A DNA stretch of 64,000 nucleotides from Streptomyces hydrogenans (GTDB taxonomy: Bacteria; Actinomycetota; Actinomycetes; Streptomycetales; Streptomycetaceae): the NCBI RefSeq assembly GCF_014656075.1, contig NZ_BNBS01000035.1, forward strand, positions 1 to 64,000. The letters run 5' to 3'. Numbering within the stretch: the stretch's first letter is position 1; every line of letters starts with the position of its first letter. The notes under the pieces were generated by a model, which was given only the letters and a program-made list of their open reading frames with translations, did not search any database and was not told the DNA's origin. The position numbers were made by a program, and so were the translations under genes. Below are positions 1,770 through 22,600 of this stretch, one piece after another.

Positions 1770-1844
1770 TACAACCAGTCGATCTCCTCGTGAGTCTGAC
1801 CGGGCACGGCACGCCCGTGCCCGGTCTTCCCGTGGGAGTTCACC
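1770..1844 (+). promoter_or_regulatory. ECF-like promoter plus leader hairpin of paralog 2
   Basis: TACAACC at 1770-1776, 15-bp spacer, GAGTC at 1792-1796. A perfect 12-bp stem follows at 1798-1809/1815-1826 with a 5-nt loop. The SD-like GGGAG lies at 1834-1838 and the TTG start at 1845, 18 nt after the hairpin. The AAC-containing -35 and GTC -10 resemble ECF-sigma promoters; the assignment is inferred. Confidence 0.7.
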
Positions 1845-4079
1845 TTGCAGTACCGCACCGCCGGCGCCCGCCTGGCCTCCGCCGTCACCGCCGTCCTCGC
1901 CGTCACGGCCCTCGGCGCGGGCACCCTCGCGACGGCGCCGGCGGCCTTCGCGGCGACCTCCGGAACCACCGCCGCCGGTGCCGCCGCCGCGCAGGAGGAC
2001 GCCCTGCCCGCCTTCCCCGCGGGCGCCACGGTCGCGGGGGCGGGCGCCACCGGCTTCCTCACCTACGACTCCTACGCCTCCGAGAACTCCCCCGAGCTGC
2101 TCTGGACGCCGTACGGGGGCGGCGCGCCGACCCCGCTGACCCGCCCGGAGGGCGGCGCCTGGGCGACCTCGGGCGGCGACGTGGTCGCCCTGGGCGACGC
2201 CGGCTTCATCTCCGAGTTCCGCAAGCTCACCCTGCGGAACATGGCCGTGCCCGGCGCCCCCGGCGTGGACCTCGACCTCGGCTCCCTCGGCGGCAACTAC
2301 GTGGCCGTCCTGGGCCCGTCGAGCGTGCTCGCCCAGATCACCGAGGCCGACGGCACGGCCGAGCTGCACGTCGTCACCCAGGGCGGGAGCGCCGCGCCGA
2401 CGACGCGCAAGGTACCGGGGCTGCCCGCCGACGCCACCGACTTCTTCACCAGCGCGCCCGTCAAGGACGGCCTCGTCCTCGTCGGCTACGAGACGGGCCC
2501 CTCGGGCGCGCGCAAGGGCGGCCGCGCCCTGATCGACCTCACGCAGAACAAGGTCCTGGAGACCTACGCCTCCGCCGAGTCCGGCTACGGCTTCAGCCAC
2601 CTCATGTTCTCGGACACCCACGTGGCCTGGCTCGACTGGGCCAGCGGCACCGGGCTGTACGTGACCTCCGTCGACCGTGCGACCCGCGCGACGAAGCAGA
2701 CCGTGCTGGGCTCGCGCGGCGACGAGTGGTTCGTCGAGCTGACGGGTGACTGGCTGGTCCACGGGGCCAACGGCGAGGCCGTCACCGCCGTCTCCCTGAC
2801 CGACGGCACGAAGCGCGCCGTCGCCGACAGCGTGACCGGCAGCGACAGCGCGGCCGACGGCAGCATGGTGCTGACCGGCAGCCGCGGCGCGGACGGCGAC
2901 GGCCTGTTCCGGGTCACGGCCGCCGGAGGCGGCGACCCGACCGTCACCAAGACGGCGGACATGGTCGCGCCGAACCCGCCGGCCTTCGTGAAGGACGACG
3001 TCCCCGCGACGACGAACCTCGACGCGACCGGCGGCGAGGTGCGGCTCGGCTGGACGCTGTCCCACGCCGACGCCTACATGTTCGTCACGCTCACCCACCT
3101 GGCCACCGGCAGGCAGTACCAGCAGTACGTGCACTCCCCCACCGACGACGAGAACTTCTCCTTCGTCTGGGACGGGCACGTCGACGACGACGACGCGCCG
3201 AACGGCACGTACCGGGTGGACGCCGAGGCGCATGCGCTCAACGGGCTCGGCGAGCCCGCGCGCCGGACCGACCAGCTGGTCCTCACCCGCACCCCCAACC
3301 CCCACGACTACTCGAACAACGGCTCCACCGACGTCCTCGCGCGGGACGCCGCCGGCGTGCTGTGGCGCGACGAGCTGAGGGACCGGCCGCAGAACGGCGT
3401 GGTCGTGACGGCGGGCCGGACCAAGGTCGGCGCCGGGTGGAACACGTACAAGCAGATCGAGGCCGTCGGCAGCATCGCCGGCGCCGCGCACGGCGACCTG
3501 GTCGCGCTCGACGGGGCCGGCGTGCTGTGGCACTACCTCGGCAAGGGCGACGGCACCTTCACCGCCCGCACCAAGGTCGGCGGCGGCTGGCAGAACTACA
3601 CCCGGCTGACCGGCGGTTCGGACCTCGACGCCGACGGGCGCTCCGACCTCCTGGCCACGGACGCGGCCGGCGCGCTCTGGTTCTACAAGGGCACCGGCTC
3701 CGCCACCAAGCCGTTCGCGACCCGCGTGAAGGTCGGCGGCGGCTGGCAGGTCTACAACCAGCTCACCGCCGTCGGGAACATCGCGGGCACCGCCGCCGGC
3801 GACCTCGTCGCCCGCGACAAGGACGGCGTCCTCTGGCTCTACCAGGGCAACGGCCGCGGCGGCTTCGGCGGGCGCGTCCAGATCGGCGGCGGCTGGGGGG
3901 CCTTCTCGCACCTCGTCGGCGCCGGCGACGTCGACAACGACGGCCGCCCCGACCTCGTCGCCCACGGCCGCAACGGCACCTACGTCTACAAGTCGACCGG
4001 CACGGCCAACCGGCCCTTCACCCGTCTGACCACCGACCTGTACGCGGGCGAGGGCAGCACGTTCGGCCAGGTCGTCTGA
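1845..4079 (+). CDS. FG-GAP/VCBS repeat secreted protein, paralog 2
   Basis: This 744-residue protein starts at TTG 1845, chosen because the SD and signal peptide fit (AGARLASA...LGAGTLATAPAAFA, cleavage near residue 36). Residues about 50-390 are propeller-like, with GDWLVHG and AWLDWASG phrases. Residues about 390-483 form the Ig-like module (LTHLATGRQYQQY...WDGH...APNGTYR). From residue about 485 come five blades of roughly 48 residues: NNGSTD, then GSIAGAAHGD, DLDADGRSD, NIAGTAAGD and DVDNDGRPD. Calcium-type and non-calcium-type loops therefore alternate. A secreted adhesin or receptor role is likely from the fold; no anchor motif or LPXTG is seen. It is probably co-transcribed with paralog 3, 25 bp downstream. 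Confidence 0.9.
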   Translation: MQYRTAGARLASAVTAVLAVTALGAGTLATAPAAFAATSGTTAAGAAAAQEDALPAFPAGATVAGAGATGFLTYDSYASENSPELLWTPYGGGAPTPLTRPEGGAWATSGGDVVALGDAGFISEFRKLTLRNMAVPGAPGVDLDLGSLGGNYVAVLGPSSVLAQITEADGTAELHVVTQGGSAAPTTRKVPGLPADATDFFTSAPVKDGLVLVGYETGPSGARKGGRALIDLTQNKVLETYASAESGYGFSHLMFSDTHVAWLDWASGTGLYVTSVDRATRATKQTVLGSRGDEWFVELTGDWLVHGANGEAVTAVSLTDGTKRAVADSVTGSDSAADGSMVLTGSRGADGDGLFRVTAAGGGDPTVTKTADMVAPNPPAFVKDDVPATTNLDATGGEVRLGWTLSHADAYMFVTLTHLATGRQYQQYVHSPTDDENFSFVWDGHVDDDDAPNGTYRVDAEAHALNGLGEPARRTDQLVLTRTPNPHDYSNNGSTDVLARDAAGVLWRDELRDRPQNGVVVTAGRTKVGAGWNTYKQIEAVGSIAGAAHGDLVALDGAGVLWHYLGKGDGTFTARTKVGGGWQNYTRLTGGSDLDADGRSDLLATDAAGALWFYKGTGSATKPFATRVKVGGGWQVYNQLTAVGNIAGTAAGDLVARDKDGVLWLYQGNGRGGFGGRVQIGGGWGAFSHLVGAGDVDNDGRPDLVAHGRNGTYVYKSTGTANRPFTRLTTDLYAGEGSTFGQVV

Positions 4080-4104
4080 TCCCCTCCGTCCTCCGAGGAG
4101 TCTC

Positions 4105-6336
4105 GTGAACCACCGCGTTTCCGGGCGCCGGCTCGCCGCCGCCCTCCTCACCCTCACCACGGTCACCGCCGTGACCGGCACCCTCGTCACGGCGCCGGCC
4201 GCCGTGGCCGCCGCCACCGCCGACGGGCGGTGCGTGCCGGCCGCCGCCGGGCTGCTGCCCGTCGGGGCGGAGATCGCCGCCACGGGCGCGTTCGGCTACG
4301 TGACGACCTGCACGGACGAGAACGGCGAGACGCGTGTCGAGCGGCACGCGCCGGACGGCACGGTCTCGGCCCTGAACGCGTCGGCGGTCCACGACTCGTC
4401 GTCCGACTGGCTGGTGACGAACGACAACGGCACCGTCACCGCCTGGAACCCGACGACCGGGACGTACACCCACCACACGCTGCGCGGCGACCTCGTCGGC
4501 GTCGCGTACAACGTCGCGTACGAGAGCCTGCCCGCGGAGTCCGGCGAGGGCCGCGAGCTGTGGCAGCTGCGCAACGACAACGGCGCCGTCAGCCGGACGA
4601 AGCTCACCGACTCCGTCGGCAACGCCTTCAACGACTACACCGAGACCGCGCACAAGGTCGTCGCCGCGGGCCGGGACGCCGACGGCCGGCCCACCGTGCT
4701 GATCCTCGGCAAGGGCTACCGCACGGTCCTGAACGACCGGCGTCCGTACACCTTCCAGGCCCGGCTCCCGATCCCCACCGGCGGGCCGATCACCCAGGGA
4801 TCGCTGGGCGGCGGCGGTGACTGGAACGAGGCGACGACCGGGGCGGTCACCCCGAAGTACCGGGCGTCGATCACGGACACGGCGGACGGCGGTCACACCC
4901 TCAACCACCTGGCCGTCGGCAGCACTTCGGACCACGACATCCCGCTCACCGACATCGCCGGACAGCCGGTCCTGGCCGGGATCATCGGCGACACGGCCCT
5001 GTACGCGGCCCGGCGCGACCCGGGCGCCGGCCCCGAGGTGCTGACCCCGCTGTTCGCGCGGAACCTGGCGACGGGCGGAGCCCCGTACAAGGTCCTGGAG
5101 AACTTCTCGTCCGTCGCGCACGCGGCGGACGGCAGCCTGCTGGTGCGCGGGGCGAGCGCCGAGGCCGACGGGCTGTTCGCCCTTGGCCGGGACGGGACGG
5201 TGACGCCCGTCCTCGTCGCCGGCACCGGCCGGGTCGTGGCGCTCAGGGTGACCGGCTCGACCGTGCCGGCGTCGGTGAGCCTGGAGAAGCCCGGGACGAG
5301 CGTCCCGCTCTCCGTCCGGCTCTCGCGCGCGGACGCGACCGTGGACCTGACCCTCACCCACACCGCCACCGGCCGGAAGCTGACCAAGCGGCTCGTCCGG
5401 TCCGGCGACGAGCCCCTGTTCACCGGGGCCTGGGACGGCGTCCTGGGCGGGATCAGCGCCCCCAACGGCGGCTACACCTGGCAGGCCGCCGCCACCTCGC
5501 TGGACGGCGCCGCCCACGACACCGCCTCCGGCACCCTCGCCGTGACCCGTGCCGCCAACCCGCACGATCTCAACGCCAACGGCTCCACGGACCTCCTGGC
5601 CCGGGACGCGGCCGGGACGCTGTGGCGGGACGACCTCTTCGACTGGCCGGTCGGCGGGCAGGTGAGGCCGGCCGAGCGGACGAGGATCGGCACGGGCTGG
5701 AACACGTACCGGCAGATCGAGGCGGCCGGGAACATCGGCGGCGCGGGCCACGGCGACCTCGTCGCCGTCGACGGGTCGGGCTACCTCTGGCACTACCTCG
5801 GCAAGGGCGACGGCACCTTCACCGCCCGCACCAAGGTCGGCGGCGGCTGGCAGGGCTACACCCGGCTGGCCGGCGGCTCGGACCTCGCGGCGGACGGCAG
5901 GGCGGACCTCTTCGCCGTCGACACGGCCGGCTCCCTCTGGTTCTACCCGGGCACGGGCAGCGCCTCGCGGCCGTACGGGACGCGCGTCAGGATCGGCGGC
6001 GGCTGGCAGGGCTACACCCAGCTGACGGCGGTCGGCAACATCGTCGGCGACGCGGGCGGCGACCTCGTCGCCCGCGACAAGGACGGCGTGCTGTGGCTGT
6101 ACGAGGGCAACGGCTACGGCTTCAAGGGCCGGGTCCGCGTCGGCGGCGGCTGGAACGCCTTCCGCGAGCTGGTGGGCGCGGGCGACGTGACCGGCGACGG
6201 CCGGCCGGACCTGATCGGGTACGGGGCGGGCGGCACGTACGTCTACCGCTCCAACGGCACGGTCCAGTCGCCCTTCACCCGCCAGTCGACCCCGCTCTAC
6301 GTGGGCGAGGGCAGCACGTTCACCAGCGTCTCCTGA
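4105..6336 (+). CDS. FG-GAP/VCBS repeat secreted protein, paralog 3
   Basis: This 743-residue protein starts at GTG 4105 with GAGGAG just upstream. No TACAACC promoter or hairpin lies in the 25-bp gap, so it is read as the second gene of a unit with paralog 2. The N-terminus MNHRVSGRRLAA...TGTLVTAP is a signal peptide nearly shared with paralog 8, and the two form a subfamily. The mature part has a Cys pair (GRCVPAA, VTTCTDE) that could form a disulfide outside the cell. The Ig-like module (LTLTHTATGRKLTKR, APNGGYTW) lies near residues 395-485. Five blades follow, starting DLNANGSTD. The C-terminus is EGSTFTSVS, as in paralogs 2 and 8 (EG.TF). Confidence 0.9.
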   Translation: MNHRVSGRRLAAALLTLTTVTAVTGTLVTAPAAVAAATADGRCVPAAAGLLPVGAEIAATGAFGYVTTCTDENGETRVERHAPDGTVSALNASAVHDSSSDWLVTNDNGTVTAWNPTTGTYTHHTLRGDLVGVAYNVAYESLPAESGEGRELWQLRNDNGAVSRTKLTDSVGNAFNDYTETAHKVVAAGRDADGRPTVLILGKGYRTVLNDRRPYTFQARLPIPTGGPITQGSLGGGGDWNEATTGAVTPKYRASITDTADGGHTLNHLAVGSTSDHDIPLTDIAGQPVLAGIIGDTALYAARRDPGAGPEVLTPLFARNLATGGAPYKVLENFSSVAHAADGSLLVRGASAEADGLFALGRDGTVTPVLVAGTGRVVALRVTGSTVPASVSLEKPGTSVPLSVRLSRADATVDLTLTHTATGRKLTKRLVRSGDEPLFTGAWDGVLGGISAPNGGYTWQAAATSLDGAAHDTASGTLAVTRAANPHDLNANGSTDLLARDAAGTLWRDDLFDWPVGGQVRPAERTRIGTGWNTYRQIEAAGNIGGAGHGDLVAVDGSGYLWHYLGKGDGTFTARTKVGGGWQGYTRLAGGSDLAADGRADLFAVDTAGSLWFYPGTGSASRPYGTRVRIGGGWQGYTQLTAVGNIVGDAGGDLVARDKDGVLWLYEGNGYGFKGRVRVGGGWNAFRELVGAGDVTGDGRPDLIGYGAGGTYVYRSNGTVQSPFTRQSTPLYVGEGSTFTSVS

Positions 6337-6398: not shown

Positions 6399-6496
6399 TA
6401 CAACCATATATACGGATCAAGAGTCCCCTAGGGCGGTACGCACCCGTGTGCGTACCGCCCGGTCTCGTTCCAGGCAGTACCTCCAGGGGGAACACC
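6399..6496 (+). promoter_or_regulatory. ECF-like promoter plus leader hairpin of paralog 4
   Basis: TACAACC at 6399-6405, 15-bp spacer, GAGTC at 6421-6425. A 13-bp perfect stem lies at 6431-6443/6448-6460 with a 4-nt loop. The TTG start is at 6497, 36 nt after the hairpin, the longest such distance in the array. An AGGGGG-type SD lies at 6485-6490. Confidence 0.7.
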
Positions 6497-8755
6497 TTGA
6501 CTTCCGTACGCTCCGCGCGAAGCCGCCGTCTCGGCGCGGCCGTCGCCACCGTCCTCGCCGCGACCCTCGGCGCCGGCGCCCTCACCACCGGCCCCGCGGC
6601 CGCCGCCGTGAGCGCCGCCCCGCAGGCCGCCCCCACCGCCGACGGACTCGGAGTGGTGCCCGCCTTCCACAAGCTGCTCGGCGGCGGGAAGCACGGCGCC
6701 TTCACGATGGACGGCAACCGGTACGACCACCAGGACCCCACCTACGGGCGGCTGACCTACACGCGGTACACCGACGGCACCACGATCGAACTCGACATGA
6801 TCAGCGCGGAGGACCGCGTCGTGGCCACCGGCGACACCGGGGCCGTGATCAACCCGTTCGAGACGTCCGTCACCGTCTTCGACGGGGCGCGGGGAGGCTC
6901 CTACACCCTGCCGGTCGACGAGGACACCTACGACCTCCGGGAGATCGGGCTCGCGGGCGGCGGGCTGCTCGCCGTCTCCACCACCGGCCCGCAGCCCGTC
7001 CTGAAGCTGCACACCGTCGCGGAGGGCAGCCGGGTGATCGACGGCATGCCCGGCAAGGACGCGACCCCGACCCTGGCGTCCGCCACCGACGCGCACGCCC
7101 TGCTCCTCACCAAGGACGCGGGAGGCGCGGCCGTCTGGGCCGTCGTCGACCTGGCCACGGCGAAGGTCGTGGAGACCTACGCCGTCCCGGCCGCGGCGGA
7201 CCCGTCCTCCGTCACCTTCTCCGACCGGCGGATCGCCTGGGTCGAGTACCCGGCGGACGCCGCCCCCCGGGCGGTCGTCCGCGACCGGACCGGCGGCGCG
7301 GACAGCACGGTGCCGCTCCCCCAGGCGCCCGACCGGGACTACGACCTCGGCCTGGTCGGCGACTGGCTGACGTACAGCCGGCCCGGCGGACTCACCGCCA
7401 CCACGCCCTCCCCGGCACGCCCCCTGACGGCCCGCCACCTGACCGGCGGCGAGTCGTTCGAGCTGCTGGACCACACCGTCCGCTCCACCGACAGCCCCGC
7501 GGGCGGCCAGACCGTGTGGGGCGGCAGCGTCGCCGGCGGAGCGGACGGCGAGGGCGTCCACCAGATCACCGCCGGCCCGGACGGCGTGCCCCGGGCCGTG
7601 CAGGAGGCGACCACCGGCGAGTCCACCGCGCTGCGGCCCGCCTCCTCGGAACTCCCGCACGACGGGAAGTGGTTCCGGCCGGTGAACGGCGTCCTGGCCC
7701 CCCTCCGCTTCGACTTCGCCCTGAACCGGGGCAACGTGCGGGTCGACGCCGTCTTCCGGCACCAGGACGGCAGGAAGCTCACCCGCACCTGGACCGCCAC
7801 GGACCGGAACGTGCGGTTCGACTGGAACCACTACATCGGCACCACGGAGAACGGCGAGCCCCGGTACTCCGGCGCACCCAGCGGCAGCTACCAGGTCTCC
7901 TTCACCTTCACCCCGCTGAACGGAATCGGCGAAGCGGTGCGGGTGGAGGGCCAGCTCGCCCTCGAACTCGGCATCCGGCCGCACGGCTTCGACTTCGACA
8001 CCACCCCCGACCTCCTCGCCCGCGACGCCGACGGCGTCCTGTGGACCGACACCACGGTCCTGACCCCGGAGGGGGAGCTGGACGGGCGGCGGGCACGGGT
8101 CGGCGGCGGCTGGCAGGCGTACGACCGGATCGAGACCACCGGGGACATCGCCCTCGCCAACAGGTCCGACATCGTCGCCCGCGACCGGTCCGGCGTCCTG
8201 TGGTTCTACGAGAGCAACGGCTACGGGCGCTTCTTCGACCGGTCCCGCGTCGGCGGCGGCTGGCAGGTGTACGACCAGCTGTCCGGCGGCTCCGACTACA
8301 CCGGCGACGGCCGCCCCGACCTCCTCGCCACCGACAAGACCGGCGTCCTGTGGCTCTACCGGTCCACCGGGAACGTCGACGCCCCCTTCGCCGCCCGCAA
8401 GAAGATCGGCTCCGGCTGGGGCGTCTACAACCAGCTCGTCGGCACCGGCAACATCGCCGGAGCCGCCGCGGGCGACCTCCTCGCCCGCGACAAGGACGGC
8501 GTCCTCTGGATGTACCTCGGCAAGGGCGACGGCACCTTCACCGGCCGCACCCGCATCGGCGGAGGCTGGAACGCCTACACGGAGCTGATCGGCGGCGGCG
8601 ACGCCGACAACGACGGGAAGCCCGACCTGTTCGCGTACAGCGCCGCCGAGCGGAAGACGTACTTCTACGGCGGCACCGGCGACCGCACCAAGCCCCTCAA
8701 GGTCCGCCGGGCGAACACGGTCTTCGCCGGCGGCGCGTACAACCACGTCGCCTGA
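6497..8755 (+). CDS. FG-GAP/VCBS repeat secreted protein, paralog 4
   Basis: This 752-residue protein starts at TTG 6497, after an SD-like AGGGGG and directly before a signal peptide (RSRRLGAAVATVLAATLGAGALT, cleavage after AAA). The frame is open upstream, but those codons overlap the promoter and hairpin. The Ig-like module is divergent (FRHQDGRKLTRTW, GAPSGSYQVSF). Blades begin near residue 495 with DFDTTPD, a weakened calcium loop, then NRSDIVARD, DYTGDGRPD, NIAGAAAGD and DADNDGKPD. The C-terminus YNHVA is encoded by codons containing the -35 element proposed for paralog 5. Long stretches of the last blades match paralogs 5 and 6 at the DNA level. Confidence 0.9.
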   Translation: MTSVRSARSRRLGAAVATVLAATLGAGALTTGPAAAAVSAAPQAAPTADGLGVVPAFHKLLGGGKHGAFTMDGNRYDHQDPTYGRLTYTRYTDGTTIELDMISAEDRVVATGDTGAVINPFETSVTVFDGARGGSYTLPVDEDTYDLREIGLAGGGLLAVSTTGPQPVLKLHTVAEGSRVIDGMPGKDATPTLASATDAHALLLTKDAGGAAVWAVVDLATAKVVETYAVPAAADPSSVTFSDRRIAWVEYPADAAPRAVVRDRTGGADSTVPLPQAPDRDYDLGLVGDWLTYSRPGGLTATTPSPARPLTARHLTGGESFELLDHTVRSTDSPAGGQTVWGGSVAGGADGEGVHQITAGPDGVPRAVQEATTGESTALRPASSELPHDGKWFRPVNGVLAPLRFDFALNRGNVRVDAVFRHQDGRKLTRTWTATDRNVRFDWNHYIGTTENGEPRYSGAPSGSYQVSFTFTPLNGIGEAVRVEGQLALELGIRPHGFDFDTTPDLLARDADGVLWTDTTVLTPEGELDGRRARVGGGWQAYDRIETTGDIALANRSDIVARDRSGVLWFYESNGYGRFFDRSRVGGGWQVYDQLSGGSDYTGDGRPDLLATDKTGVLWLYRSTGNVDAPFAARKKIGSGWGVYNQLVGTGNIAGAAAGDLLARDKDGVLWMYLGKGDGTFTGRTRIGGGWNAYTELIGGGDADNDGKPDLFAYSAAERKTYFYGGTGDRTKPLKVRRANTVFAGGAYNHVA

Positions 8756-8820
8756 CCACCGGTCCACGAGGGCGGCGCGCCCACCGGGCGCGCCGCCCGT
8801 CCCAGACAGGGGAACACCTC
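8738..8820 (+). promoter_or_regulatory. ECF-like promoter (inside paralog 4 end) plus leader hairpin of paralog 5
   Basis: TACAACC at 8738-8744 lies within the last codons of paralog 4. After 15 bp comes CGGTC at 8760-8764, a weaker -10 that keeps GTC. The 12-bp stem is 8770-8781/8787-8798 with loop CACCG. The SD AGGGGA is at 8808-8813. The hairpin could also help terminate paralog 4. Confidence 0.55.
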
Positions 8821-11004: not shown

Positions 11005-11068
11005 CCGGTTGTCCTACAGGCAGGTTCGCGCGGTTGTACGAACCTGCCTGTCTGCACCTGGAGGGGTC
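10987..11068 (+). promoter_or_regulatory. ECF-like promoter (inside paralog 5 end) plus leader hairpin of paralog 6
   Basis: TACAACC at 10987-10993 overlaps the last codons of paralog 5, with TTGTC at 11009-11013 after a 15-bp spacer. The 13-bp perfect stem is 11016-11028/11039-11051 with a 10-nt loop. GGAGGGG lies at 11060-11066 and TTG at 11069, 17 nt after the hairpin. Confidence 0.65.
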
Positions 11069-13361: not shown

Positions 13362-15593
13362 GTGCTTCCTGTGCGTCTCACCCGCCGCGCCGCGGCGGCC
13401 GCTGCCACCGTCCTCGCCGTCACCCTCGGCGCCGGAGCCCTGACCGCGCCGGCCACCGCGGCGGACGCGGCGACCGGCGCGGCGACGCAGGAGGGCGTCA
13501 CCCGGATGTCCCTGAACTACGTGGTCGACGAGGCCGGCAGCACCGGGTTCTTCGACAGCCTCTGGTTCAACGAGGGCGTCCGCGCGTGGACGAGCTACAC
13601 GGACGGCCGGTCCTACAGCCTGAGCCGCTACGCGAAGTCGGTCTCGGTGGTGGGCGGCGACCAGTTCGTCGACAGCGAGACCGACACCGTGATCAACATG
13701 GCGACGGGTGCCCGCTACCAGCTCCCCACCAGCAACAACTGGGAGATCGGCATCGCCGGTCCGTACGTCTTCACCACGCTCTCCCCGGCCTCGGGCGTGA
13801 CGCTGTGGGCCCACACCGCCCAGGGCAGCCGGCAGATCACCGGCCTGCCCGCCGGCGCCAAGAGCGTCTCGGTCCGTCCCGGCACCGCGCGGTACGCCGT
13901 CATCGCCTTCACCGACGCGGACGGCGGACGGCACCAGGGCCTGGTGGACCTCGCGGCGGGGAAGGTCACCGAGGTCTACGCGGTCCCGGCGTCGGCCTCC
14001 TCGTTCACCTTCTCGGACACCCGGGTCGCCTGGGCGGAGCGCGACGACGCGTCCGGCACGGCGCGGGCGGTCGTCCTCACCCGGGGGACGGACGAGCGGA
14101 AGACCGTCGACCTCGGCACCATGCCCCGCACCGCCGAGGTGCAGCTGGTGGGAGACTGGCTCCTCGACGGACTGCCCCTGCGGGAGGGCCGGGACCTGAC
14201 GCCCGGCTACGGCCTGCGCGCCCGGAACCTCGCCGACGGCTCCGCGCCGGTCAAGCTGCTCGACTACTTCCAGACGATGACCCGCGACACCGGCGGCGGC
14301 GTCCTGGCCAGCGGCGGCCGGCTCGGGAAGGGCGAGGGCGTCCACCGGATCGAGCGCGGCGCGGACGGCCGGCCCACCGTCACCCTCGTCGCGAGCAACG
14401 GCTCGCCGGCCGAGACCGCGGAGATGCGGGAACCCCTGATGCGGAACCCGGTCGACCTGGACCGGGAATCGAGCGTCTCGTTCCACTGGTACGTGAACCA
14501 CTGGGACACCAAGGCCACCGTGCGGCTGCGGCACGTCCGTACCGGCAAGACCTACGACTGGGCCTCGGACGGCTACGGCGGGGGCCGTCGCATGGACGGG
14601 AACAACAACGACTACGGCGACGGCTTCTCCATGGGCCCCGGCGACTGGGTGGGGACGTTCGGCACCCAGGACGAGAGCGCGCCCGGCACCACCATCGCCT
14701 ACAACGGCGCCTACACCTGGGAGTTCACCGCGGAGTCCCTGGCCGGTCTCGGCCCCGCCGTGAAGAGGTCCGGCACCTTCACCGTCGTCCGCAGCCCCAA
14801 GCAGCACGACTTCGACGACAATGGCTCGCCCGACATCCTCGCGCGCGACGCCTCCGGCGTCCTGCGGTCGGACACCTCGGTCCGCTCCCGCCGATGGAGC
14901 GCCCTGACCGAGTTCGAGGTCCCGGAGACGACGATCGGCGGCGGCTGGCAGATCTACGACCGGATCGAGACCGTCGGGAACGTCGCCGGCTCCGTCCACG
15001 CCGACGTCATCGCCCGCGACAAGGCCGGCGTCCTCTGGCTCTACCAGGGCGACGGCAACGGCGGCTTCGCCGGCCGCGTCCAGGTCGGCGGCGGCTGGCA
15101 GACCTACGACAGGATCACCGGCGGCTCCGACTTCACCGGCGACGGCCGCGCCGACGTCGTGGCCGTCGACAAGGCGGGCGACCTGTGGCTGTACAAGGCC
15201 ACCGGCAGTGCCACCAAGCCCTTCGACACCCGCAAGAAGGTCTCCTCCGGCTGGGGCGGCTACGACCAGCTCACCGCCACCGGGAACATCGCGGGCGCCG
15301 CCCACGGCGACCTCGTCACCCGTGACGCGAACGGCGTCATGTGGATGTTCCTCGGCAAGGGCGACGGCACCTTCACCGAGCCCACCCGCCTGCGCGAGGG
15401 CTTCGGCCGGTACAGCAAGTTCATCGGCGCGGGCGACTACGACGACGACGGCAGGAACGACCTGCTCGCCGTCGAGGCCGCCACCGGCAAGACGTACCTC
15501 TTCCAGGGCACGGGCGCCCGCACCACCCCGTTCGAGCGGGCCCGCATCGGCACCGCCCTCTTCTCCTCGGGGTCGTACGACCTGTTCGGCTGA
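13362..15593 (+). CDS. FG-GAP/VCBS repeat secreted protein, paralog 7
   Basis: This 743-residue protein starts at GTG 13362 with GGAGAG upstream. The signal peptide (LPVRLTRRAAAAAATVLAVTLG) nearly repeats that of paralog 6. The Ig-like module (LRHVRTGKTYDW, AYNGAYTWEFTAES) is extended by a Gly/Asn/Asp-rich insert. The blades carry DFDDNGSPD, GSVHADVIARD, DFTGDGRAD, GAAHGDLVTRD and DYDDDGRND. The C-terminus is YDLFG, so the TACAACC seen at the ends of paralogs 4-6 is changed to TACGACC. No matching promoter is seen for the next gene, 34 bp away, so paralog 8 is probably read from the same transcript. Confidence 0.9.
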   Translation: MLPVRLTRRAAAAAATVLAVTLGAGALTAPATAADAATGAATQEGVTRMSLNYVVDEAGSTGFFDSLWFNEGVRAWTSYTDGRSYSLSRYAKSVSVVGGDQFVDSETDTVINMATGARYQLPTSNNWEIGIAGPYVFTTLSPASGVTLWAHTAQGSRQITGLPAGAKSVSVRPGTARYAVIAFTDADGGRHQGLVDLAAGKVTEVYAVPASASSFTFSDTRVAWAERDDASGTARAVVLTRGTDERKTVDLGTMPRTAEVQLVGDWLLDGLPLREGRDLTPGYGLRARNLADGSAPVKLLDYFQTMTRDTGGGVLASGGRLGKGEGVHRIERGADGRPTVTLVASNGSPAETAEMREPLMRNPVDLDRESSVSFHWYVNHWDTKATVRLRHVRTGKTYDWASDGYGGGRRMDGNNNDYGDGFSMGPGDWVGTFGTQDESAPGTTIAYNGAYTWEFTAESLAGLGPAVKRSGTFTVVRSPKQHDFDDNGSPDILARDASGVLRSDTSVRSRRWSALTEFEVPETTIGGGWQIYDRIETVGNVAGSVHADVIARDKAGVLWLYQGDGNGGFAGRVQVGGGWQTYDRITGGSDFTGDGRADVVAVDKAGDLWLYKATGSATKPFDTRKKVSSGWGGYDQLTATGNIAGAAHGDLVTRDANGVMWMFLGKGDGTFTEPTRLREGFGRYSKFIGAGDYDDDGRNDLLAVEAATGKTYLFQGTGARTTPFERARIGTALFSSGSYDLFG

Positions 15594-15627: not shown

Positions 15628-17865
15628 ATGAACCAGCGCCACTCCCCCCGCCGCCTGGCGACCCTGGTCCTCGCCCTCTCTGCCGTGACGGCGGTGACGG
15701 GGACCCTCGTCACCGCCGTCCCGGCGGCCGGGTCCACCGGGGCCGGGGCCCGCCCGGCCGCCGCCGACGCGGCGACCCTGCCCGTGGACGCCGAGGTCGT
15801 CGGCTCCGGGGCGACCGGATACCTGACCACCCGTGAGGACGCCGCCGGGAAGCCGGTGCTGGAGTGGCGGACCTTCGCGGACGGAGCGGTCACGGTCCTG
15901 CCCGGGGCGACCGTCGGATACGACAGCCGCTCCGACCACGCCGTGGTCAGCGGCCCGGACGGCGTGACCGTCCGGGACATGCGGCCGGGCGCCACCTGGT
16001 CGGCGACCTACGACCTGGCGGAGGAGTTCCGACCGGGCTCGCGGATGGCCGGCGCGGTCGGATCGCACCTGTTCGTCAACGTGCCGACGGACTCGGGCTT
16101 CTGGGACCTGTACGAGCTGTACGAGACGCCCGGCGGCGAGGTGCGCAAGACGCGGCTGACCTCGCGCCCGCGCGGGCTGGGCTCCACCGTGGCGGCCGCC
16201 TCCGGTGACAAGGCGCTGATCCTGGGCCTGAACCAGGTGACCGAGAACCTGCGCCCGGTGGCCCACTGGCGGGCCGTCGCGACCCTCGGCGGCGGCGCGG
16301 TCGTGGACGGGGAGGGCGCGCACGACCTGGGCGGGACGGGCACCTGGCCGTCCCCGGTGACGGGCGCGCTCACCCCCGCGTACCAGGCGTGGACCTGGTC
16401 CGAGGCGGGCGGCACCGGCATCGTCGTGGCCTCGGCGGACGGCGAGCGCCGGCTGCCGCCCTGGGTCTCGGGACCCCCGTACCTCGCGGGGATCGTCGGG
16501 GACACCGTCCTGTACGGCCCGGTGCGCACCGTCGAGTCGTCGCCGGACGACGAGTTCCCGCTGTACGGACGGGACCTGCGCGACGAGGAGAGCGCGCCCT
16601 ACCGGCTCCTCGGGGAGTTCACGAGCGTGGCGCACGCGCCCGACGGGAGCCTGCTCGTGCGGGGCAGGTCCGCCGAGCACGACGGGCTGTTCCGGATCTC
16701 GGCGGGCGCCGGGCGTCCGGTGGCCTCGCTGGTGGCGGACACCGGGCGGGACGTGGCCCTGCGGATCGTCGCCTCGCACGTGCCGGCCGTGGTCGACATG
16801 CAGAAGCGGAACGGGCCCTACCGGATGGACTGGGTGCTCAACCAGGCGTGGGCCTACGTCGAGGTGACGCTCACCCATACAGCCACCGGCGCCACCCTGC
16901 GGACGTACGCGACCCGGACCGGCTACGCGGACTCCGACCCGTACGTCTTCGACTGGGACGGGCTCCTGGACGGGGCCGCCGCGCCGAACGGCGCCTACCG
17001 GTGGGAGGTGACGGCCCGGTCCTCCGACGGGATCGCCGCCCCGGCGACCGCCTCGGGCTCGTTCACGGTCCGCCGGGACCGCAACCCGCACGACTTCAAC
17101 GACAACGGCTCGACGGACCTGCTGGCCCGGGACGCCTCGGGCGTGCTGTGGCGGGACGACCTCCTGGACTGGCCGCTGAACGGCCGGTTCGCCGCGGCCC
17201 GGCGGACGAAGGTGGGCGCCGGGTGGAACACGTACAAGCAGATCGAGGCCGTCGGGAACATCGCGGGCGCCGCGCACGGCGATCTGGTGGGGGTCGACGG
17301 GGCCGGCCTGCTGTGGCACTACCTCGGCAAGGGCGACGGCACCTTCACCGCCCGCCGCAAGGTCGGCGGCGGCTGGCAGGTCTACGACAAGATCACCGGC
17401 GGCTCGGACCTGAACGGCGACGGCCGCCCGGACCTCGTCGCGGCGGACCGGTCCGGCGGGCTGTGGTTCTACAAGGGCACCGGCGACGCGGCCCGGCCGT
17501 TCGCCGCCCGGGTGCGGGTCGGCGGCGGCTGGCAGGTCTACGACCAGCTCACCGCCGTCGGGAACATCGCGGGCACCGCCCCCGGAGACCTCGTCGCCCG
17601 CGACAAGGACGGCGTCCTCTGGCTCTACCAGGGCAACGGCCGCGGCGGCTTCGCCGGACGGGTCCGGGTCGGCGGCGGCTGGCAGGCGTTCTCGCACCTC
17701 GTCGGCGCGGGCGACATCAGCAACGACGGCCGCCCCGACCTCATCGCCTACGGCAGGAACGGCACCGCGCTGTACGAGGCGACCGGTTCGGTCACCCAGC
17801 CCTTCTGGCCCAGCGCCGTCGAGCTGTACCCGGGCGAGGGCGGCACGTTCGACCCGGTCCTCTGA
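15628..17865 (+). CDS. FG-GAP/VCBS repeat secreted protein, paralog 8
   Basis: This 745-residue protein starts at ATG 15628 with a weak GGGCGA upstream. The N-terminus MNQRHSPRRLATLVLALSAV...TGTLVTAV resembles paralog 3, and like paralog 3 it follows a promoter-bearing member with neither promoter nor hairpin of its own. The propeller part includes GATGYLTTRED, HAPDGSLLVRGRSAEHDGLF and RDVALR. The Ig-like module is LTHTATGATLRTY through APNGAYRWEV. Blades begin DFNDNGSTDLLARD near residue 490, then GAAHGDLVGVD, DLNGDGRPD, NIAGTAPGD and DISNDGRPD. The same arrangement in genes 2-3 and 7-8 suggests that the array grew partly by two-gene block duplication. Confidence 0.9.
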   Translation: MNQRHSPRRLATLVLALSAVTAVTGTLVTAVPAAGSTGAGARPAAADAATLPVDAEVVGSGATGYLTTREDAAGKPVLEWRTFADGAVTVLPGATVGYDSRSDHAVVSGPDGVTVRDMRPGATWSATYDLAEEFRPGSRMAGAVGSHLFVNVPTDSGFWDLYELYETPGGEVRKTRLTSRPRGLGSTVAAASGDKALILGLNQVTENLRPVAHWRAVATLGGGAVVDGEGAHDLGGTGTWPSPVTGALTPAYQAWTWSEAGGTGIVVASADGERRLPPWVSGPPYLAGIVGDTVLYGPVRTVESSPDDEFPLYGRDLRDEESAPYRLLGEFTSVAHAPDGSLLVRGRSAEHDGLFRISAGAGRPVASLVADTGRDVALRIVASHVPAVVDMQKRNGPYRMDWVLNQAWAYVEVTLTHTATGATLRTYATRTGYADSDPYVFDWDGLLDGAAAPNGAYRWEVTARSSDGIAAPATASGSFTVRRDRNPHDFNDNGSTDLLARDASGVLWRDDLLDWPLNGRFAAARRTKVGAGWNTYKQIEAVGNIAGAAHGDLVGVDGAGLLWHYLGKGDGTFTARRKVGGGWQVYDKITGGSDLNGDGRPDLVAADRSGGLWFYKGTGDAARPFAARVRVGGGWQVYDQLTAVGNIAGTAPGDLVARDKDGVLWLYQGNGRGGFAGRVRVGGGWQAFSHLVGAGDISNDGRPDLIAYGRNGTALYEATGSVTQPFWPSAVELYPGEGGTFDPVL

Positions 17866-17965: not shown

Positions 17966-20083
17966 GTGTCGTCCGCCCGCATCCGCCGGCCCCGGCTGTC
18001 CGCCGCCGTCGCCGTCGCCCTCGCCGTCACGGGGACCCTCCTGGCCGCCCCGGCGGCCCTCGCCGCACCGGCCGCGCCGGTGAGCGCCGTCGGGGCGGCC
18101 GTCCAGGGCGTCGCCCCCTTCCCGGAGAACGGCACGGTGCTCAGCGCCGGCGAAACCGGCTTCCTCGCGAAGGCCGGCACCTCCCTCGCCCCGTACTTCT
18201 GGACGTCGTACGACGGCACCGTCACCGCCCTGCCCGGCGCCCGCCACCTCGGCGCCGACGGGTCCGACACGGTCGTGCAGGACTCCGGCGACGGCACGTA
18301 CACCCTGCGGGACATGGGGTCGGACGCCGCGCCCGTCGTCATCACCACGCCCGGCAGGCTGGTCGCCGTCGTGGGCACGACGCTCGTGACGCAGGACGCG
18401 CAGGGATTCCACCTGGTGAGCCGGGACGGGGACCGGGTCGAGCGCCGCACCGTGACCGGCCTGCCGGGCGGCGAGGCGCGCCTGGGCAGCGCGGTGCCGG
18501 GGGCGCTGACGGTGCTGACGGACGGCGGCGCGGACCGCCTCTCCCTGGTGGACACCACGACGGCCTCCGTCGTCACGACCGTCACGGCCCGCAACAGCGT
18601 CCTGGGCTTCGAGAACGTCGCCGGGTCGCCGACGCACCTCACCTGGTACGACTACACACCGGCGGACGACGGCGGGTCGTTCCACCTCTACGACCGCGCG
18701 ACCGGCCGCACCCAGGTCCTGGACCACGTGGGCGGCGGCCAGTCGGTGGCCCTCTCGGAGGACTGGCTGGCGGTCGCGGGCGGCGGGACGCTCGGGCAGG
18801 TGGGATGGCCGCTCCTGCTCCGGTCCCTGGCCGACGGCCGGGAGAAGGAGGTCCTCGACCGCGTCGACAACCTGCGGATCGGGGCCGACGGCGCGTTCCT
18901 CGTCCAGGGCGTCGACGCGCGCGAGAAGGGCGTCTACCGGATCACGGTCGGCGCGGACGGCGAACCCGCCGCGCGGCTCGTCGCGAGCTCCGGACGCCTG
19001 CCGGACCTCACCATGACGCTGGAGGACGTGCCGAAGGTCGTCGACTTCGACGACGAGGACGCCCGCGTGTACCTGTCCTGGGACTTCAACCTCAGCGTGG
19101 CGCCCAAGCTCACGCTGACCCACACCGCCACCGGGCGGCAGCGGACCCTCTCGTACGGCATCCACTCCCCCGGACCCAGGTACCGCTTCGTCTGGAACGG
19201 CGACGGTCCGTTCACCGGCACGGGTGACTACAGCGGCGAGTACACCTGGAAGATGACGGCCACGGAGACGTCCGACGTCGGCCCGAGCGTCGAGCGGACC
19301 GGCACCCTCACGCTCAACCGCCCCGCGACGCCGCGCGACTTCGACGCCAACGGCTTCCCGGACGTCCTCGCCAGGGACGCCTCCGGCGGGCTGTCCGCCT
19401 ACGAGGCCAAGCAGTTGGGCGACAGGTACGCGGACACGCTGTCCCCGACGCCGCTGGGCACCGGCTGGAACACGTACACGCTGACGGCCTCGCCGTCGGA
19501 CCGCACGCTCGTCGGCCGGGACCGCGACGGCGTGCTGTGGATGCACCGGAGCGAGGGTCAGAAGCTGCTGCCCCGCACGAAGGTCGGCGGCGGCTGGCAG
19601 GTCTACAACAAGATCGTCGGAGGCTCCGACCTCAACGGCGACGGCCGCGGCGACCTCCTCGCCACCGACACCTCCGGCGTCCTGTGGCTCTACACCTCCA
19701 CCGGCAACACCGCCCGCCCCTTCCACACCCGGAAGAAGGTCGGCGGCGGCTGGCAGGTCTACAACCTCCTCACCGCGCCCGGGAACGTCGCCGGAGCCTC
19801 CGGCGGCGACCTCCTCGCCCGCGACAAGGACGGCGTCCTCTGGCTCTACCTCGGCAAGGGCGACGGCACCTTCACCGCCCGCCGCCAGATCGGCGGCGGC
19901 TGGCAGAAGTACACCCACCTCGTCCCGGTCGGGACGAACGACGCCGGCGCGGCCGACGTGTACGCGGTCGGCCCGACCGGCCTCGTCGCCTACACCGGCC
20001 TCAACAGCACGACCCGCCCCTTCGGCCCGGGCCGCACGCTCACCGCGGACCTCGACCCCACCCGCTTCACGGCCTTCTTCTGA
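17966..20083 (+). CDS. FG-GAP/VCBS repeat secreted protein, paralog 9
   Basis: This 705-residue protein is the shortest complete member. It starts at GTG 17966 after GGAGG at 17953-17957. The signal peptide is RIRRPRLSAAVAVALAV...APAALAAPA. The Ig-like module (LTLTHTATGRQRTLS, GEYTWKMTATE) uses a more compact linker. The first blade has DFDANGFPD but lacks the usual following segment, running through SPSDRTLVGRD. Blades with DLNGDGRGD and GASGGDLLARD are normal. The last blade is degenerate (VGTNDAGAADVYAVG), with no calcium loop. The C-terminus TRFTAFF does not match its neighbours. No promoter of the array type precedes it. Confidence 0.9.
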   Translation: MSSARIRRPRLSAAVAVALAVTGTLLAAPAALAAPAAPVSAVGAAVQGVAPFPENGTVLSAGETGFLAKAGTSLAPYFWTSYDGTVTALPGARHLGADGSDTVVQDSGDGTYTLRDMGSDAAPVVITTPGRLVAVVGTTLVTQDAQGFHLVSRDGDRVERRTVTGLPGGEARLGSAVPGALTVLTDGGADRLSLVDTTTASVVTTVTARNSVLGFENVAGSPTHLTWYDYTPADDGGSFHLYDRATGRTQVLDHVGGGQSVALSEDWLAVAGGGTLGQVGWPLLLRSLADGREKEVLDRVDNLRIGADGAFLVQGVDAREKGVYRITVGADGEPAARLVASSGRLPDLTMTLEDVPKVVDFDDEDARVYLSWDFNLSVAPKLTLTHTATGRQRTLSYGIHSPGPRYRFVWNGDGPFTGTGDYSGEYTWKMTATETSDVGPSVERTGTLTLNRPATPRDFDANGFPDVLARDASGGLSAYEAKQLGDRYADTLSPTPLGTGWNTYTLTASPSDRTLVGRDRDGVLWMHRSEGQKLLPRTKVGGGWQVYNKIVGGSDLNGDGRGDLLATDTSGVLWLYTSTGNTARPFHTRKKVGGGWQVYNLLTAPGNVAGASGGDLLARDKDGVLWLYLGKGDGTFTARRQIGGGWQKYTHLVPVGTNDAGAADVYAVGPTGLVAYTGLNSTTRPFGPGRTLTADLDPTRFTAFF

Positions 20084-20157
20084 CGGGTGCGGGGCACCCG
20101 GCGGACGTCACCGACCTGACGTACTCCCCACGGTTTCCGAATAACCACAAACATCCC

Positions 20158-20247
20158 TACAACCCCACATACCGCTCATGAGTCGGACGGGGAGAGCGGC
20201 GTCTCCGCGCCGCTCTCCCCGTCCGACTCACGTGAAGGGCCTGCCCG
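20158..20247 (+). promoter_or_regulatory. ECF-like promoter plus leader hairpin of paralog 10
   Basis: TACAACC at 20158-20164, 15-bp spacer, GAGTC at 20180-20184. A perfect 23-bp stem runs 20179-20201/20208-20230 with a 6-nt loop, the longest of the array, and its outer end includes the proposed -10. GAAGGG at 20234-20239 precedes the start. Confidence 0.7.
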
Positions 20248-22467
20248 TTGATGCGTACTTCCCGATCCCGGCGGCGGCTCGTGACGGCCGTCGCCGTCGC
20301 GTTCGCCGTGACCGCCGGCGCCGCCGCGGCCCCCGCCCTCGCCACCCCCGCGTCCGCTCCCGCCCTCGCCGTCGCGGCGCCCGCGGCAGCCGGAGAAGCG
20401 GAGCAGGACGCGATAGGCATCCGCGCGAGCCTCCTGCGCGGCAGCGGGCCGTCCGGTTTCCTGACCCGGTCGAAGACGACGGTCGACCAGTTCTTCTGGA
20501 CGCGGTACGCGGACGGCGTCACCGTCACGCTGCCCCGCGGCGAGTACCACGGCTCCGCGCGGAGCGACGTGGTCGTGCGGCGGGCGGAGACGGACCGCTA
20601 CGCGGTGTACGACATGTCCACGGGAGGCGCGCCCGTCGAGATCGACACCGCGTTCCTCGGCTCGTCCGCGCAGTTCCTCGGGCCCTCCGGGAGGACCCTC
20701 GTCTTCCGCACCTCGGACGCCTCGGGCAACGCCACCCTGCACCTGGTCTCCCAGGAGGAGGGCGCCGAGCCCGTCGACCGCACGGTCACCGGACTGCCCG
20801 CCGACACCAGGGTCGTCCGCCACAGCCTGTCCTCGCCCGGCGTCCTCGCCCTCCTCCACACCGGTTCGGTCGACGGGGTGTCCCAGACCCGTCTGGGCGT
20901 CGTCGACCTGACGTCCGGGAAGCTCGCGGACAGCCGCGTGGTGCCCGCCGGCACCGGCTCCATCAGCGCCTCCGACACCCACGTGGCCTGGGTGGACGGG
21001 GCGTACGTGGTGACGGCCCGCCGGGGCGCCACCACCACCGTCCGGACGTCCGTCGGCTGGGGGACCGGACTCCGCGTCGACCTGATGGGCGACTGGGTCA
21101 CGTACAGCCTGCCCGGCGGGTCGACCGCCACCACGCCGTCCGACCTCCACGCCCTGACGGCCCGCTCCCTCACCGCCGGGAACGCGACCACCGTCAAGCT
21201 CCTGGACACCACGCTGACCGCGTACGCGGAGGCGGGCGGCAGCCTGCTGGTCCAGGGCGGGACCGTCGCCCAGGGCGAGGGCGTCTACCGAATCGCCCCG
21301 GGCGCCGACGGCAGGCCGGCGGCCACGCTCGTGGCGGACACCGGCGAGTCCACGGCACTGGCGGTGACGGACGAGAAGCTCCCCGGAACCATCGACCTCC
21401 GCCTCGACAACGGCGAGCCGCACCTGTCCTGGGGCCTCAACCAGCAGAAGGCGCAGGTGACCCTCAAGATCACCGAGACCGCGACCGGCGCCCACGGCCG
21501 GGTCCCGGTCAAGGACGACGACGGGGACGGGACCTACACCGTCTTCTGGAACGGCGAGCTGGACGGCGCGGGCGCCACCAACGGCGCGTACACGTGGACG
21601 ATGACCGCCCAGCCCGCCAACCGCATCGGGCCCGACCTGATCCGGTCCGGCTCCTTCACCCTGGACAGCGGCCACGGCCCACACGCCTACTCCAACAGCT
21701 TCTCCCCCGACCTGCTGACGCGCACCGGCTCGGGCCGGCTCGTCTCCTACGACGTCCGCCGACTCACCGACAACGGCCATTCCGCGCCGGCGAAGGACCA
21801 CGGCGGCGGCTGGCAGATCTACGACCGGGTGATCGCCACCGGCAACGTGGCGGGGACCACCCACGCCGACGTCCTGGGCCGCGACCGCGCCGGCGTCCTC
21901 TGGTTCTACCAGGGCACGGACACCGGCCTCGCCCGCCGGACCCAGGTCGGGGGCGGCTGGCAGGTGTACGACAAGCTCGCCGGAGGCACCGACGTGACGG
22001 GCGACGGCCGCGCCGACCTCCTCGCCGCCGACAGGTCCGGCGTCCTCTGGCTCTACCCGGCCACCGGCAACACCGCGCGCCCCTTCGCCACCCGGAAGAA
22101 GATCGGCGGCGGCTGGCAGGTCTACGACAAGCTCGTCAGCCTGAACAACGTCGGCGGCGACGGCGCCTCCAGGCTCTTCGCCCGGGACAAGAACGGCGTC
22201 CTCTGGGACTACTGGAGCCCGGGCGACGGCACGTTCAAGCCGCGTCGGCAGATCGGCGGCGGCTGGCAGCGGTACAAGGAGATCGTCGGCACCGGCAACG
22301 CGGACAGCGACGACCGCTTCGACCTGATCGGCCACGACCCGTCCCACCTCGGCCGGACCCTGCACTTCTACGGCAGCGCCAACGCCTCGCCCACCATGTT
22401 CCTCGGCGGCCGGAAGCAGTTGTCCACCCCGCCCGCCCTCGACGACCGGAACACCCTGGTCTTCTGA
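20248..22467 (+). CDS. FG-GAP/VCBS repeat secreted protein, paralog 10
   Basis: This 739-residue protein starts at TTG 20248, immediately followed by ATG 20251. The SD GAAGGG sits 8 nt before the TTG, which favours it, but ATG cannot be excluded. The signal peptide has many Arg (RTSRSRRRLVTAVAVAFAV) and ends near APALATPA. The Ig-like module is LKITETATGAHGRV through GATNGAYTWTM. The first blade has lost its calcium loop (YSNSFSPDLL); later loops read DVTGDGRAD, NVGGDGAS and NADSDDRFD, so only one is canonical. Of the ten complete members its blade set is the most divergent. Confidence 0.9.
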   Translation: MMRTSRSRRRLVTAVAVAFAVTAGAAAAPALATPASAPALAVAAPAAAGEAEQDAIGIRASLLRGSGPSGFLTRSKTTVDQFFWTRYADGVTVTLPRGEYHGSARSDVVVRRAETDRYAVYDMSTGGAPVEIDTAFLGSSAQFLGPSGRTLVFRTSDASGNATLHLVSQEEGAEPVDRTVTGLPADTRVVRHSLSSPGVLALLHTGSVDGVSQTRLGVVDLTSGKLADSRVVPAGTGSISASDTHVAWVDGAYVVTARRGATTTVRTSVGWGTGLRVDLMGDWVTYSLPGGSTATTPSDLHALTARSLTAGNATTVKLLDTTLTAYAEAGGSLLVQGGTVAQGEGVYRIAPGADGRPAATLVADTGESTALAVTDEKLPGTIDLRLDNGEPHLSWGLNQQKAQVTLKITETATGAHGRVPVKDDDGDGTYTVFWNGELDGAGATNGAYTWTMTAQPANRIGPDLIRSGSFTLDSGHGPHAYSNSFSPDLLTRTGSGRLVSYDVRRLTDNGHSAPAKDHGGGWQIYDRVIATGNVAGTTHADVLGRDRAGVLWFYQGTDTGLARRTQVGGGWQVYDKLAGGTDVTGDGRADLLAADRSGVLWLYPATGNTARPFATRKKIGGGWQVYDKLVSLNNVGGDGASRLFARDKNGVLWDYWSPGDGTFKPRRQIGGGWQRYKEIVGTGNADSDDRFDLIGHDPSHLGRTLHFYGSANASPTMFLGGRKQLSTPPALDDRNTLVF

Positions 22468-22520
22468 GCGCCCGGCCGACCCCCCGAACCTGACGCACTC
22501 CGGGGATCTTCGCAACGGCG

Positions 22521-22600
22521 TACAACCCTCCGGGCCCCTCGTGAGTCATGCGGGCGTGGCGTGTCGCGCCACGCCCGCACTCCTGGGGAGAAACGTTCCG
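22521..22600 (+). promoter_or_regulatory. ECF-like promoter plus leader hairpin of paralog 11
   Basis: TACAACC at 22521-22527, 15-bp spacer, GAGTC at 22543-22547. A 13-bp perfect stem lies at 22549-22561/22567-22579 with a 5-nt loop. GGGGAG is at 22585-22590 and the TTG start at 22601. Confidence 0.7.

What the first reader, a model, noticed from the sequence alone, without database searches (positions are those of the whole stretch)
1770..22600. Seven copies of an ECF-like promoter fused to a structure-conserved leader hairpin
Upstream of paralogs 2, 4, 5, 6, 7, 10 and 11 the same layout recurs: TACAACC, exactly 15 bp, NNGTC (GAGTC four times, TTGTC twice, CGGTC once), then a 12-23 bp stem, then the start codon. 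The start lies 17-22 nt after the hairpin in six of seven. Stem sequences are unrelated to each other while pairing is kept, so the structure rather than the sequence seems selected. If NNGTC is a -10, the transcript starts at or just before the hairpin, giving a 5'-terminal stem-loop. Possible roles are RNA stabilisation, a translation gate for the weak TTG starts, or phase-variable expression. The hairpins may instead be terminators of the gene before, but paralogs 3 and 8 lack both promoter and hairpin.
Basis: partly seen in the sequence, partly recalled or inferred. Interest (0 to 1): 0.88.

Follow-up and report, generated by a model that had tools for sequence, protein, structure and literature searches.

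The report
Promoters overlapping the previous gene's terminator
In a Streptomyces row of duplicated secreted-protein genes, seven copies of one stress-type promoter each overlap a strong palindrome that most likely stops transcription from the gene before, and the same promoter stands in front of a regulator gene found across the genus that probably switches the whole group on.

Summary
TACAACC-N15-NNGTC occurs seven times in the window (0.02 expected), each time followed by a strong hairpin.

Promoter: the same motif precedes other FG-GAP genes in this genome and an ECF sigma gene (NCBIfam SigE family; orthologue in 100 of 101 genus genomes). It lies upstream of that gene in 79 of 80 named loci. 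So these look like promoters of one autoregulated, little-studied ECF sigma.

Hairpin: it is not a constant part of the promoter. Strong hairpins concentrate in two tandem-gene families, mainly where a same-direction gene lies upstream and no other terminator intervenes (24 of 49 reach terminator grade; 3 of 19 with another terminator; 5 of 51 with a divergent neighbour). The window stems begin 1-6 nt after the -10, upstream of the inferred start near GTC+9, and such outer pairs covary. Best reading: a terminator of the preceding gene overlapping the next promoter, so that the new transcript lacks part of the stem. A 5'-terminal leader role survives as a second, weaker signal. Nothing was measured on RNA.

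The parts
1770..1796 (+). ECF-type promoter, TACAACC-N15-GAGTC, before paralog 2
1798..1826 (+). hairpin, 12 bp, starts 2 nt after GTC; likely terminator of gene 1
6399..6425 (+). ECF-type promoter before paralog 4
6431..6460 (+). hairpin, 13 bp, starts 6 nt after GTC
8738..8764 (+). promoter whose -35 lies in the last codons of paralog 4, before paralog 5
8770..8798 (+). hairpin, 13 bp, starts 6 nt after GTC
10987..11013 (+). promoter whose -35 lies in the last codons of paralog 5, before paralog 6
11016..11051 (+). hairpin, 13 bp plus inner 2 bp, starts 3 nt after GTC
13280..13306 (+). promoter whose -35 lies in the last codons of paralog 6, before paralog 7
13309..13344 (+). hairpin, 15 bp, starts 3 nt after GTC
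20158..20184 (+). ECF-type promoter before paralog 10
20180..20229 (+). hairpin, 18 bp after GTC, extended to about 23 bp through GAGTC/GACTC
22521..22547 (+). ECF-type promoter before paralog 11
22549..22579 (+). hairpin, 14 bp, starts 2 nt after GTC
1845..4079 (+). paralog 2, FG-GAP protein (PF13517), signal-peptide-like N-terminus by eye
4105..6336 (+). paralog 3, no promoter motif or terminator-grade hairpin in its 25-nt gap
6497..8755 (+). paralog 4
8821..11004 (+). paralog 5
11069..13297 (+). paralog 6
13362..15593 (+). paralog 7 (start codon uncertain, 13362 or 13371)
15628..17865 (+). paralog 8, no promoter motif or terminator-grade hairpin in its 34-nt gap
17966..20083 (+). paralog 9, no promoter motif; a hairpin of -24.5 in its 100-nt gap (start uncertain)
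20248..22467 (+). paralog 10 (start codon uncertain)
22601..24790 (+). paralog 11

Best explanation
Each TACAACC-N15-NNGTC is a promoter of one ECF sigma factor: the SigE-family sigma encoded on contig C133 of the same genome, which carries the same motif before its own gene. Transcription probably starts about 9 nt after GTC. The palindrome after the -10 is mainly the intrinsic, often U-poor (I-shaped) terminator of the preceding gene, placed across the start of the next transcription unit. RNA arriving from upstream contains the whole stem and is terminated. RNA started at the promoter lacks the outer 3-8 nt of the 5' arm (of 12-18 bp), so it forms a weaker hairpin and escapes. Each duplicated gene thus becomes a separately promoted, insulated unit in a gap of 60-200 nt. 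Tight junctions without the promoter have no such hairpin and are read as operons. Shown from sequence: the motif, its place before the sigma gene, covariation, dependence on the neighbour. Inferred: sigma dependence, start site, termination, escape.
For: Promoter. Sigma gene with the same motif upstream in 29 of 30 and 79 of 80 loci, the 80th with a spacer one base shorter; in 70 of the 79 exactly 8 nt lie between GTC and GTGGCAG, which suggests a leaderless start at GTC+9. Terminator: (a) in family B (PA14 type) strong hairpins (z below -2) in 8 of 9 genes with a same-direction upstream gene against 8 of 28 with a divergent one; (b) hairpin of -23 kcal/mol or lower in 24 of 49 sites with a same-direction neighbour and no other terminator, 3 of 19 with another terminator, 5 of 51 divergent; need against no need p=0.013 (family A, 30 vs 15), p=0.0004 (family B, 8 vs 26); (c) all seven window junctions lack another terminator-grade hairpin between stop and -35; (d) family-A genes are followed by a terminator-grade hairpin in 21 of 25 convergent junctions and 11 of 12 junctions with the motif (in 10 of these it is the promoter-overlapping one), but in 0 of 7 same-direction junctions under 60 nt without the motif; (e) nt 1-7 after GTC, before the inferred start, covary in family A (z -4.7 to -5.6, 0 of 2000) and, more weakly, in same-direction family B (z -2.6 to -3.3), not in the other regulon genes.
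Against: Four family-A genes with a well-supported divergent neighbour still have moderate to strong hairpins (L273 -24.1, L281 -20.1, L274 and L291 -17.7), and L144 and L141 in family B do too; inheritance from a tandem copy would explain these but is not shown. 25 of 49 sites that would need a terminator do not reach -23. In family B 2 of 8 tight same-direction junctions without the motif do hold such a hairpin, and in family A 17 of 34 same-direction junctions of any length without the motif do. Terminator-grade hairpins are common after unrelated genes too (67 of 137 same-direction, 42 of 61 convergent). Only 15 of 38 family-A and 0 of 11 family-B hairpins have 3 or more T in the next 8 nt, with no control count made. 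In divergent family B nt 1-5 are marginal rather than clean (27 of 2000). The start at GTC+9 is inferred. One of 30 sigma loci (L131) shows no motif. The -23 line was set for 40 nt; one search used 46 nt (with 40 nt the seven window hairpins give -25.7 to -38.6).
Confidence: 0.6

Rival explanations
1. The hairpin is a 5'-terminal stem-loop of the gene's own mRNA that protects it from 5'-end-dependent decay (as in ompA or aprE), and its power to terminate upstream RNA is secondary.
For: In divergent family-B genes, where no upstream gene needs ending, the arm 9-16 nt after GTC pairs with its own downstream sequence better than with those of relatives (z -6.4, 0 of 2000), and the best hairpin starts 7-11 nt after GTC in 10 of 23 against 33 of 266 controls (p=0.0005). 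Regulon genes outside the two families show the same at +8 (z -5.6, N=42; -5.1 without two family-A-like rows; -3.4 with one per group, N=22, 1 of 2000). In four control sets of 42 no value is below -2.9, in 20 sigma-R-type leaders none below -2.4.
Against: Own transcripts (nt 9-46) of these genes are no more stable than control leaders (-9.9 and -9.5 against -10.0). Outside the two families only 11 of 40 have the hairpin at 7-11 nt (p=0.015), and with a 5-nt arm the signal there is weak (26 of 2000). It does not explain the pairs upstream of the start, nor the neighbour dependence.
Confidence: 0.25
2. The hairpins have no function of their own: promoter, palindrome and gene were duplicated as a cassette.
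For: Some family-A leaders share recognisable sequence (TGACCGGGC...).
Against: Many stems differ in sequence while pairing is kept; arm-swap z -13.5, 0 of 2000.
Confidence: 0.07
3. The palindrome is an operator, an attenuator or a phase-variable switch that regulates the downstream gene.
For: It lies at the start of the transcript, a usual place for such elements.
Against: No common stem sequence for a repressor to read is seen; alternative pairings and inversion were not looked for.
Confidence: 0.05

Closest known systems
ECF sigma promoters of actinobacteria (sigma-R/SigH type; sigma-E of S. coelicolor)
   Same: AAC-N18-GTC has the geometry of GGAA[T/C]-N18-19-GTT (PMC10012870, passages seen); envelope-related targets, as for sigma-E (PMC6767563, passages seen).
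   Different: -35 is TACAACC and the -10 ends in GTC; the candidate sigma is a different SigE-family (TIGR02983) protein with this motif before its own gene.
U-poor (I-shaped) terminators of Streptomyces
   Same: Long GC stem below the -23 kcal/mol line used for highly structured transcript ends of S. clavuligerus, of which 353 of 535 lacked a U-rich tract (PMC8269248, passages seen).
   Different: Placed in register with the -10 of the next gene and across its inferred start site.
5'-terminal stabilising stem-loops (ompA, papA, aprE)
   Same: Stem at or near the 5' end of the mRNA (PMC3997798, passages and reference titles seen).
   Different: In the window the stem begins upstream of the inferred start, and across relatives its strength depends on the upstream neighbour.

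Membership tests
ECF sigma promoter | two short elements at fixed spacing, enriched over control | tested here: met
ECF sigma promoter | same motif before the gene of a candidate cognate sigma | tested here: met
   29 of 30, 79 of 80 within 600 nt upstream of the match
ECF sigma promoter | transcription lost without the sigma | not testable with these tools
   needs a mutant
SigE-family ECF sigma (TIGR02983) | profile score above cut-off; sigma regions 2 and 4 | tested here: met
   187.8 bits against 141.55; PF04542 and PF08281
Intrinsic (I-shaped) terminator | stable hairpin after a stop codon, -23 kcal/mol or lower in 40 nt | tested here: met
   seven of seven in the window, -25.7 to -38.6
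Intrinsic (U-rich) terminator | 3 or more U in the 8 nt after the stem | tested here: inconclusive
   15 of 38 family A, 0 of 11 family B, no control
Intrinsic terminator | present where a transcript must end, absent in operon-like junctions | tested here: inconclusive
   trend significant but with exceptions: 25 of 49 needing sites below grade, hairpins beside divergent genes, 2 of 8 tight family-B junctions with one
Intrinsic terminator | RNA 3' ends at the site | not testable with these tools
   needs Term-seq
5'-terminal stabilising stem-loop | stem begins at the first nucleotides of the mRNA | tested here: inconclusive
   window stems begin 1-6 nt after GTC, before the inferred start; divergent family B and other genes peak with arms starting 6-9 nt after GTC
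5'-terminal stabilising stem-loop | longer mRNA half-life | not testable with these tools
   needs RNA measurement

The most novel reading that the evidence does not exclude
One palindrome does two jobs by register alone: complete in read-through RNA it is a terminator, and cut by the start site it becomes the paired 5' end of the next mRNA. The 5'-end half is a regulon-wide trait of this ECF sigma, and the upstream half is added when a same-direction neighbour must be silenced.
Probability: 0.25. Interest if true: 0.7.

Novelty: new variant of a known kind. Interest (0 to 1): 0.5.

Why it matters
It gives a testable promoter and a target list to an ECF sigma found in 100 of 101 Streptomyces-genus genomes searched, for which I found no described regulon in the papers I could search (listings capped), and links it to FG-GAP and cell-wall proteins. 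It also suggests how tandem duplicates stay separately regulated in very short gaps: a terminator that blocks the neighbour but largely exempts the promoter it overlaps.

Tried and rejected
Rejected: a hairpin as a fixed part of the promoter (most other regulon genes lack a strong one); a pure 5'-leader reading for the window (pre-start pairs covary); a random motif; an operator reading (no common stem sequence). One conserved in-gene site made up 12 of 29 genus loci and was dropped. One search found 150 distinct sites; 44 had no called start 15-170 nt downstream and were dropped (8 of these lie inside a called gene), leaving 106, of which one search used 102 (start 30-150 nt away). The dropped rows include some likely true sites (L061, L063, the sigma's own L066). 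Near-identical leaders were removed before the swap tests (42 A, 34 B, 42 others left). Gene calls come from my own GC3-based caller, so starts and some neighbours are uncertain; the divergent neighbours of L272 and L163 look spurious and L163 (=L136) still counts as divergent. Family B was first taken for an FG-GAP family; Pfam shows PA14, fn3 and Ig-like domains on the one member scanned (L100). The name SCO3613 for the sigma is recalled: 69 of 80 loci show an Asd-type peptide upstream, as I recall for S. coelicolor; no call names it. In G000 itself aspartokinase, not asd, precedes it. [quoted passage not shown] PMC8092295 held only primers. For the start distance in ECF promoters the passages seen gave geometry but no distance I could quote. 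The sigma-R-type control pattern is recalled and has only 20 leaders.

Full report
What is there. The window lies in a 9.0 Mb genome whose sigma gene best matches Streptomyces sp. NRRL F-5727 among the named loci shown (99%). Its first 25 kb hold eleven tandem genes of one family (family A; gene 1 is cut by the contig end). Two were scanned: PF13517 FG-GAP-like repeats, one above and one below the Pfam cut-off; N-termini look like signal peptides by eye. Seven have TACAACC-N15-NNGTC with GTC 48-71 nt before the start (prefers 64 and 96 nt for two disputed starts), against 0.02 matches expected in shuffles, and each is followed by a strong hairpin. Paralogs 3, 8 and 9 lack the motif.

Which promoter. 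In the whole genome the motif also precedes family-A or similar genes on contigs C5 (two), C57, C99, C166, C170, C171 and C215 (the C57 and C215 genes are truncated and assigned by their N-termini) and, on C133, an ECF sigma gene that scores as NCBIfam SigE family. It is followed by a 424-aa protein with a likely membrane segment (by eye) and no Pfam or NCBIfam hit, an anti-sigma candidate by position only. The sigma orthologue is in 100 of 101 genus genomes at 87-100% identity, in one of them (G082) split across two frames; G001, 79% complete, has only a 42% match. The motif lies upstream in 29 of 30 loci and, within 600 nt, in 79 of 80 named loci, the eightieth having a spacer one base shorter. 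In 70 of those 79 exactly 8 nt separate GTC from GTGGCAG, the likely start. S. coelicolor has many mRNAs with leaders under 10 nt (264; PMC4681348, passages), so the simplest inference is a transcription start at GTC+9.

Which genes. Across 199 genus genomes the stricter form occurs in 102, the reversed control in 3. Behind the motif lie several FG-GAP families, a PA14/fn3 family (B), a D-Ala-D-Ala carboxypeptidase, a beta-lactamase-like enzyme, an LCP protein and exported-looking proteins without a family (18 proteins scanned, the rest by eye). This looks like an envelope-type regulon.

The hairpin, statistics. Over 102 sites the 45 nt after GTC have mean z -1.81, against -0.19 for 290 control leaders and -0.14 for 100 regions before the -35. 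Same-direction upstream gene: -2.85 (47 sites, 57% below -2); divergent: -0.97 (52 sites, 19%); controls 7%. By group the strong hairpins are concentrated in families A and B. In B: 8 of 9 against 8 of 28.

The hairpin, covariation. In the arm-swap test a leader's 5' segment is paired with its own or another leader's downstream segment; lower energy with its own means kept pairing without kept sequence. Family A: z -13.5; B: -9.0; others -5.5; 0 of 2000 each. Scanned with an 8-nt arm, family A shows the signal for arms starting from GTC to about +12, same-direction B from +3 to +9, while divergent B and the other regulon genes show it only for arms starting at about +6 to +9. Finer windows: nt 1-7 covary in A (z -4.7 to -5.6) and weakly in same-direction B (-2.6 to -3.3), not in the others; in divergent B nt 1-5 are marginal (27 of 2000) and nt 2-7 negative. 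In the control sets no value is below -2.9 or -2.4. So there are two layers: a weak one at the likely start site, also outside the two families, and a strong one reaching back to the -10 where a same-direction gene lies upstream.

Terminator test. Family genes are followed by terminator-grade hairpins at convergent junctions (A 21 of 25, B 13 of 15) and at junctions with the motif (A 11 of 12, B 1 of 1). Same-direction junctions under 60 nt without the motif: A 0 of 7, B 2 of 8; of any length: A 17 of 34, B 5 of 12. Unrelated genes reach the grade in 67 of 137 same-direction and 42 of 61 convergent junctions, so the grade alone is common. More telling, among sites with a same-direction neighbour the promoter hairpin is strong when nothing else could terminate (24 of 49) and seldom when another terminator lies before the promoter (3 of 19) or the neighbour is divergent (5 of 51). 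In the window all seven junctions have only this hairpin. The first gene of the C5 array, 439 nt from its neighbour with a hairpin of -36.9 between, has a weak promoter hairpin (-11.0), while the second, 7 nt from its neighbour, has -27.4.

Against. L273, L274, L281, L291 (A) and L144, L141 (B) keep hairpins beside divergent genes; 3 or more T follow in only 15 of 38 and 0 of 11; half of the sites that would need a terminator lack a terminator-grade one; no RNA end was mapped.

Side finding. Eight of 74 distinct family-A 3' ends carry TACAACC as Tyr-Asn codons just before the stop. In the four followed within 100 nt by a family gene GTC falls at the exact spacing; in the other four it does not. 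The -35 thus seems written into the coding end of the previous gene.

Verdict. The promoter is very probably that of an ECF sigma conserved across the genus (about 0.85 for this part). The hairpin is most probably a terminator overlapping the next promoter (about 0.6), with a possible 5'-end role in the new mRNA.

Noticed in passing
window 8738-8755, 10987-11004, 13280-13297; L257: The -35 element is formed by Tyr-Asn codons at the C-terminus of the preceding gene; GTC is at exact spacing only where another family gene follows within 100 nt (4 of 4 against 0 of 4).
   Followed up: partly
L281 1421-3126 (G190): A family-A gene lies divergently next to an aspartokinase-like gene (by eye), the gene that in G000 precedes the sigma gene.
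   Followed up: no
L066 6602-7330 and orthologues: The sigma gene's likely start lies 8 nt after its own promoter in 70 of 79 loci, and an N-terminal extension of about 80 aa precedes the ECF domain.
   Followed up: partly
window 60290-61465, - strand: A further, shorter gene related to the family (best match paralog 3, 122 bits) far from the array.
   Followed up: no
L162 (G079 C1:4646500-4663500): Tandem array of PA14-type genes in another species, with promoter plus long hairpin before two same-direction genes and neither at three tight junctions.
   Followed up: partly
L065 and L067 (contigs C99, C170): Identical 28-base promoters before two family genes near contig ends; duplicate genes or an assembly effect.
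   Followed up: no
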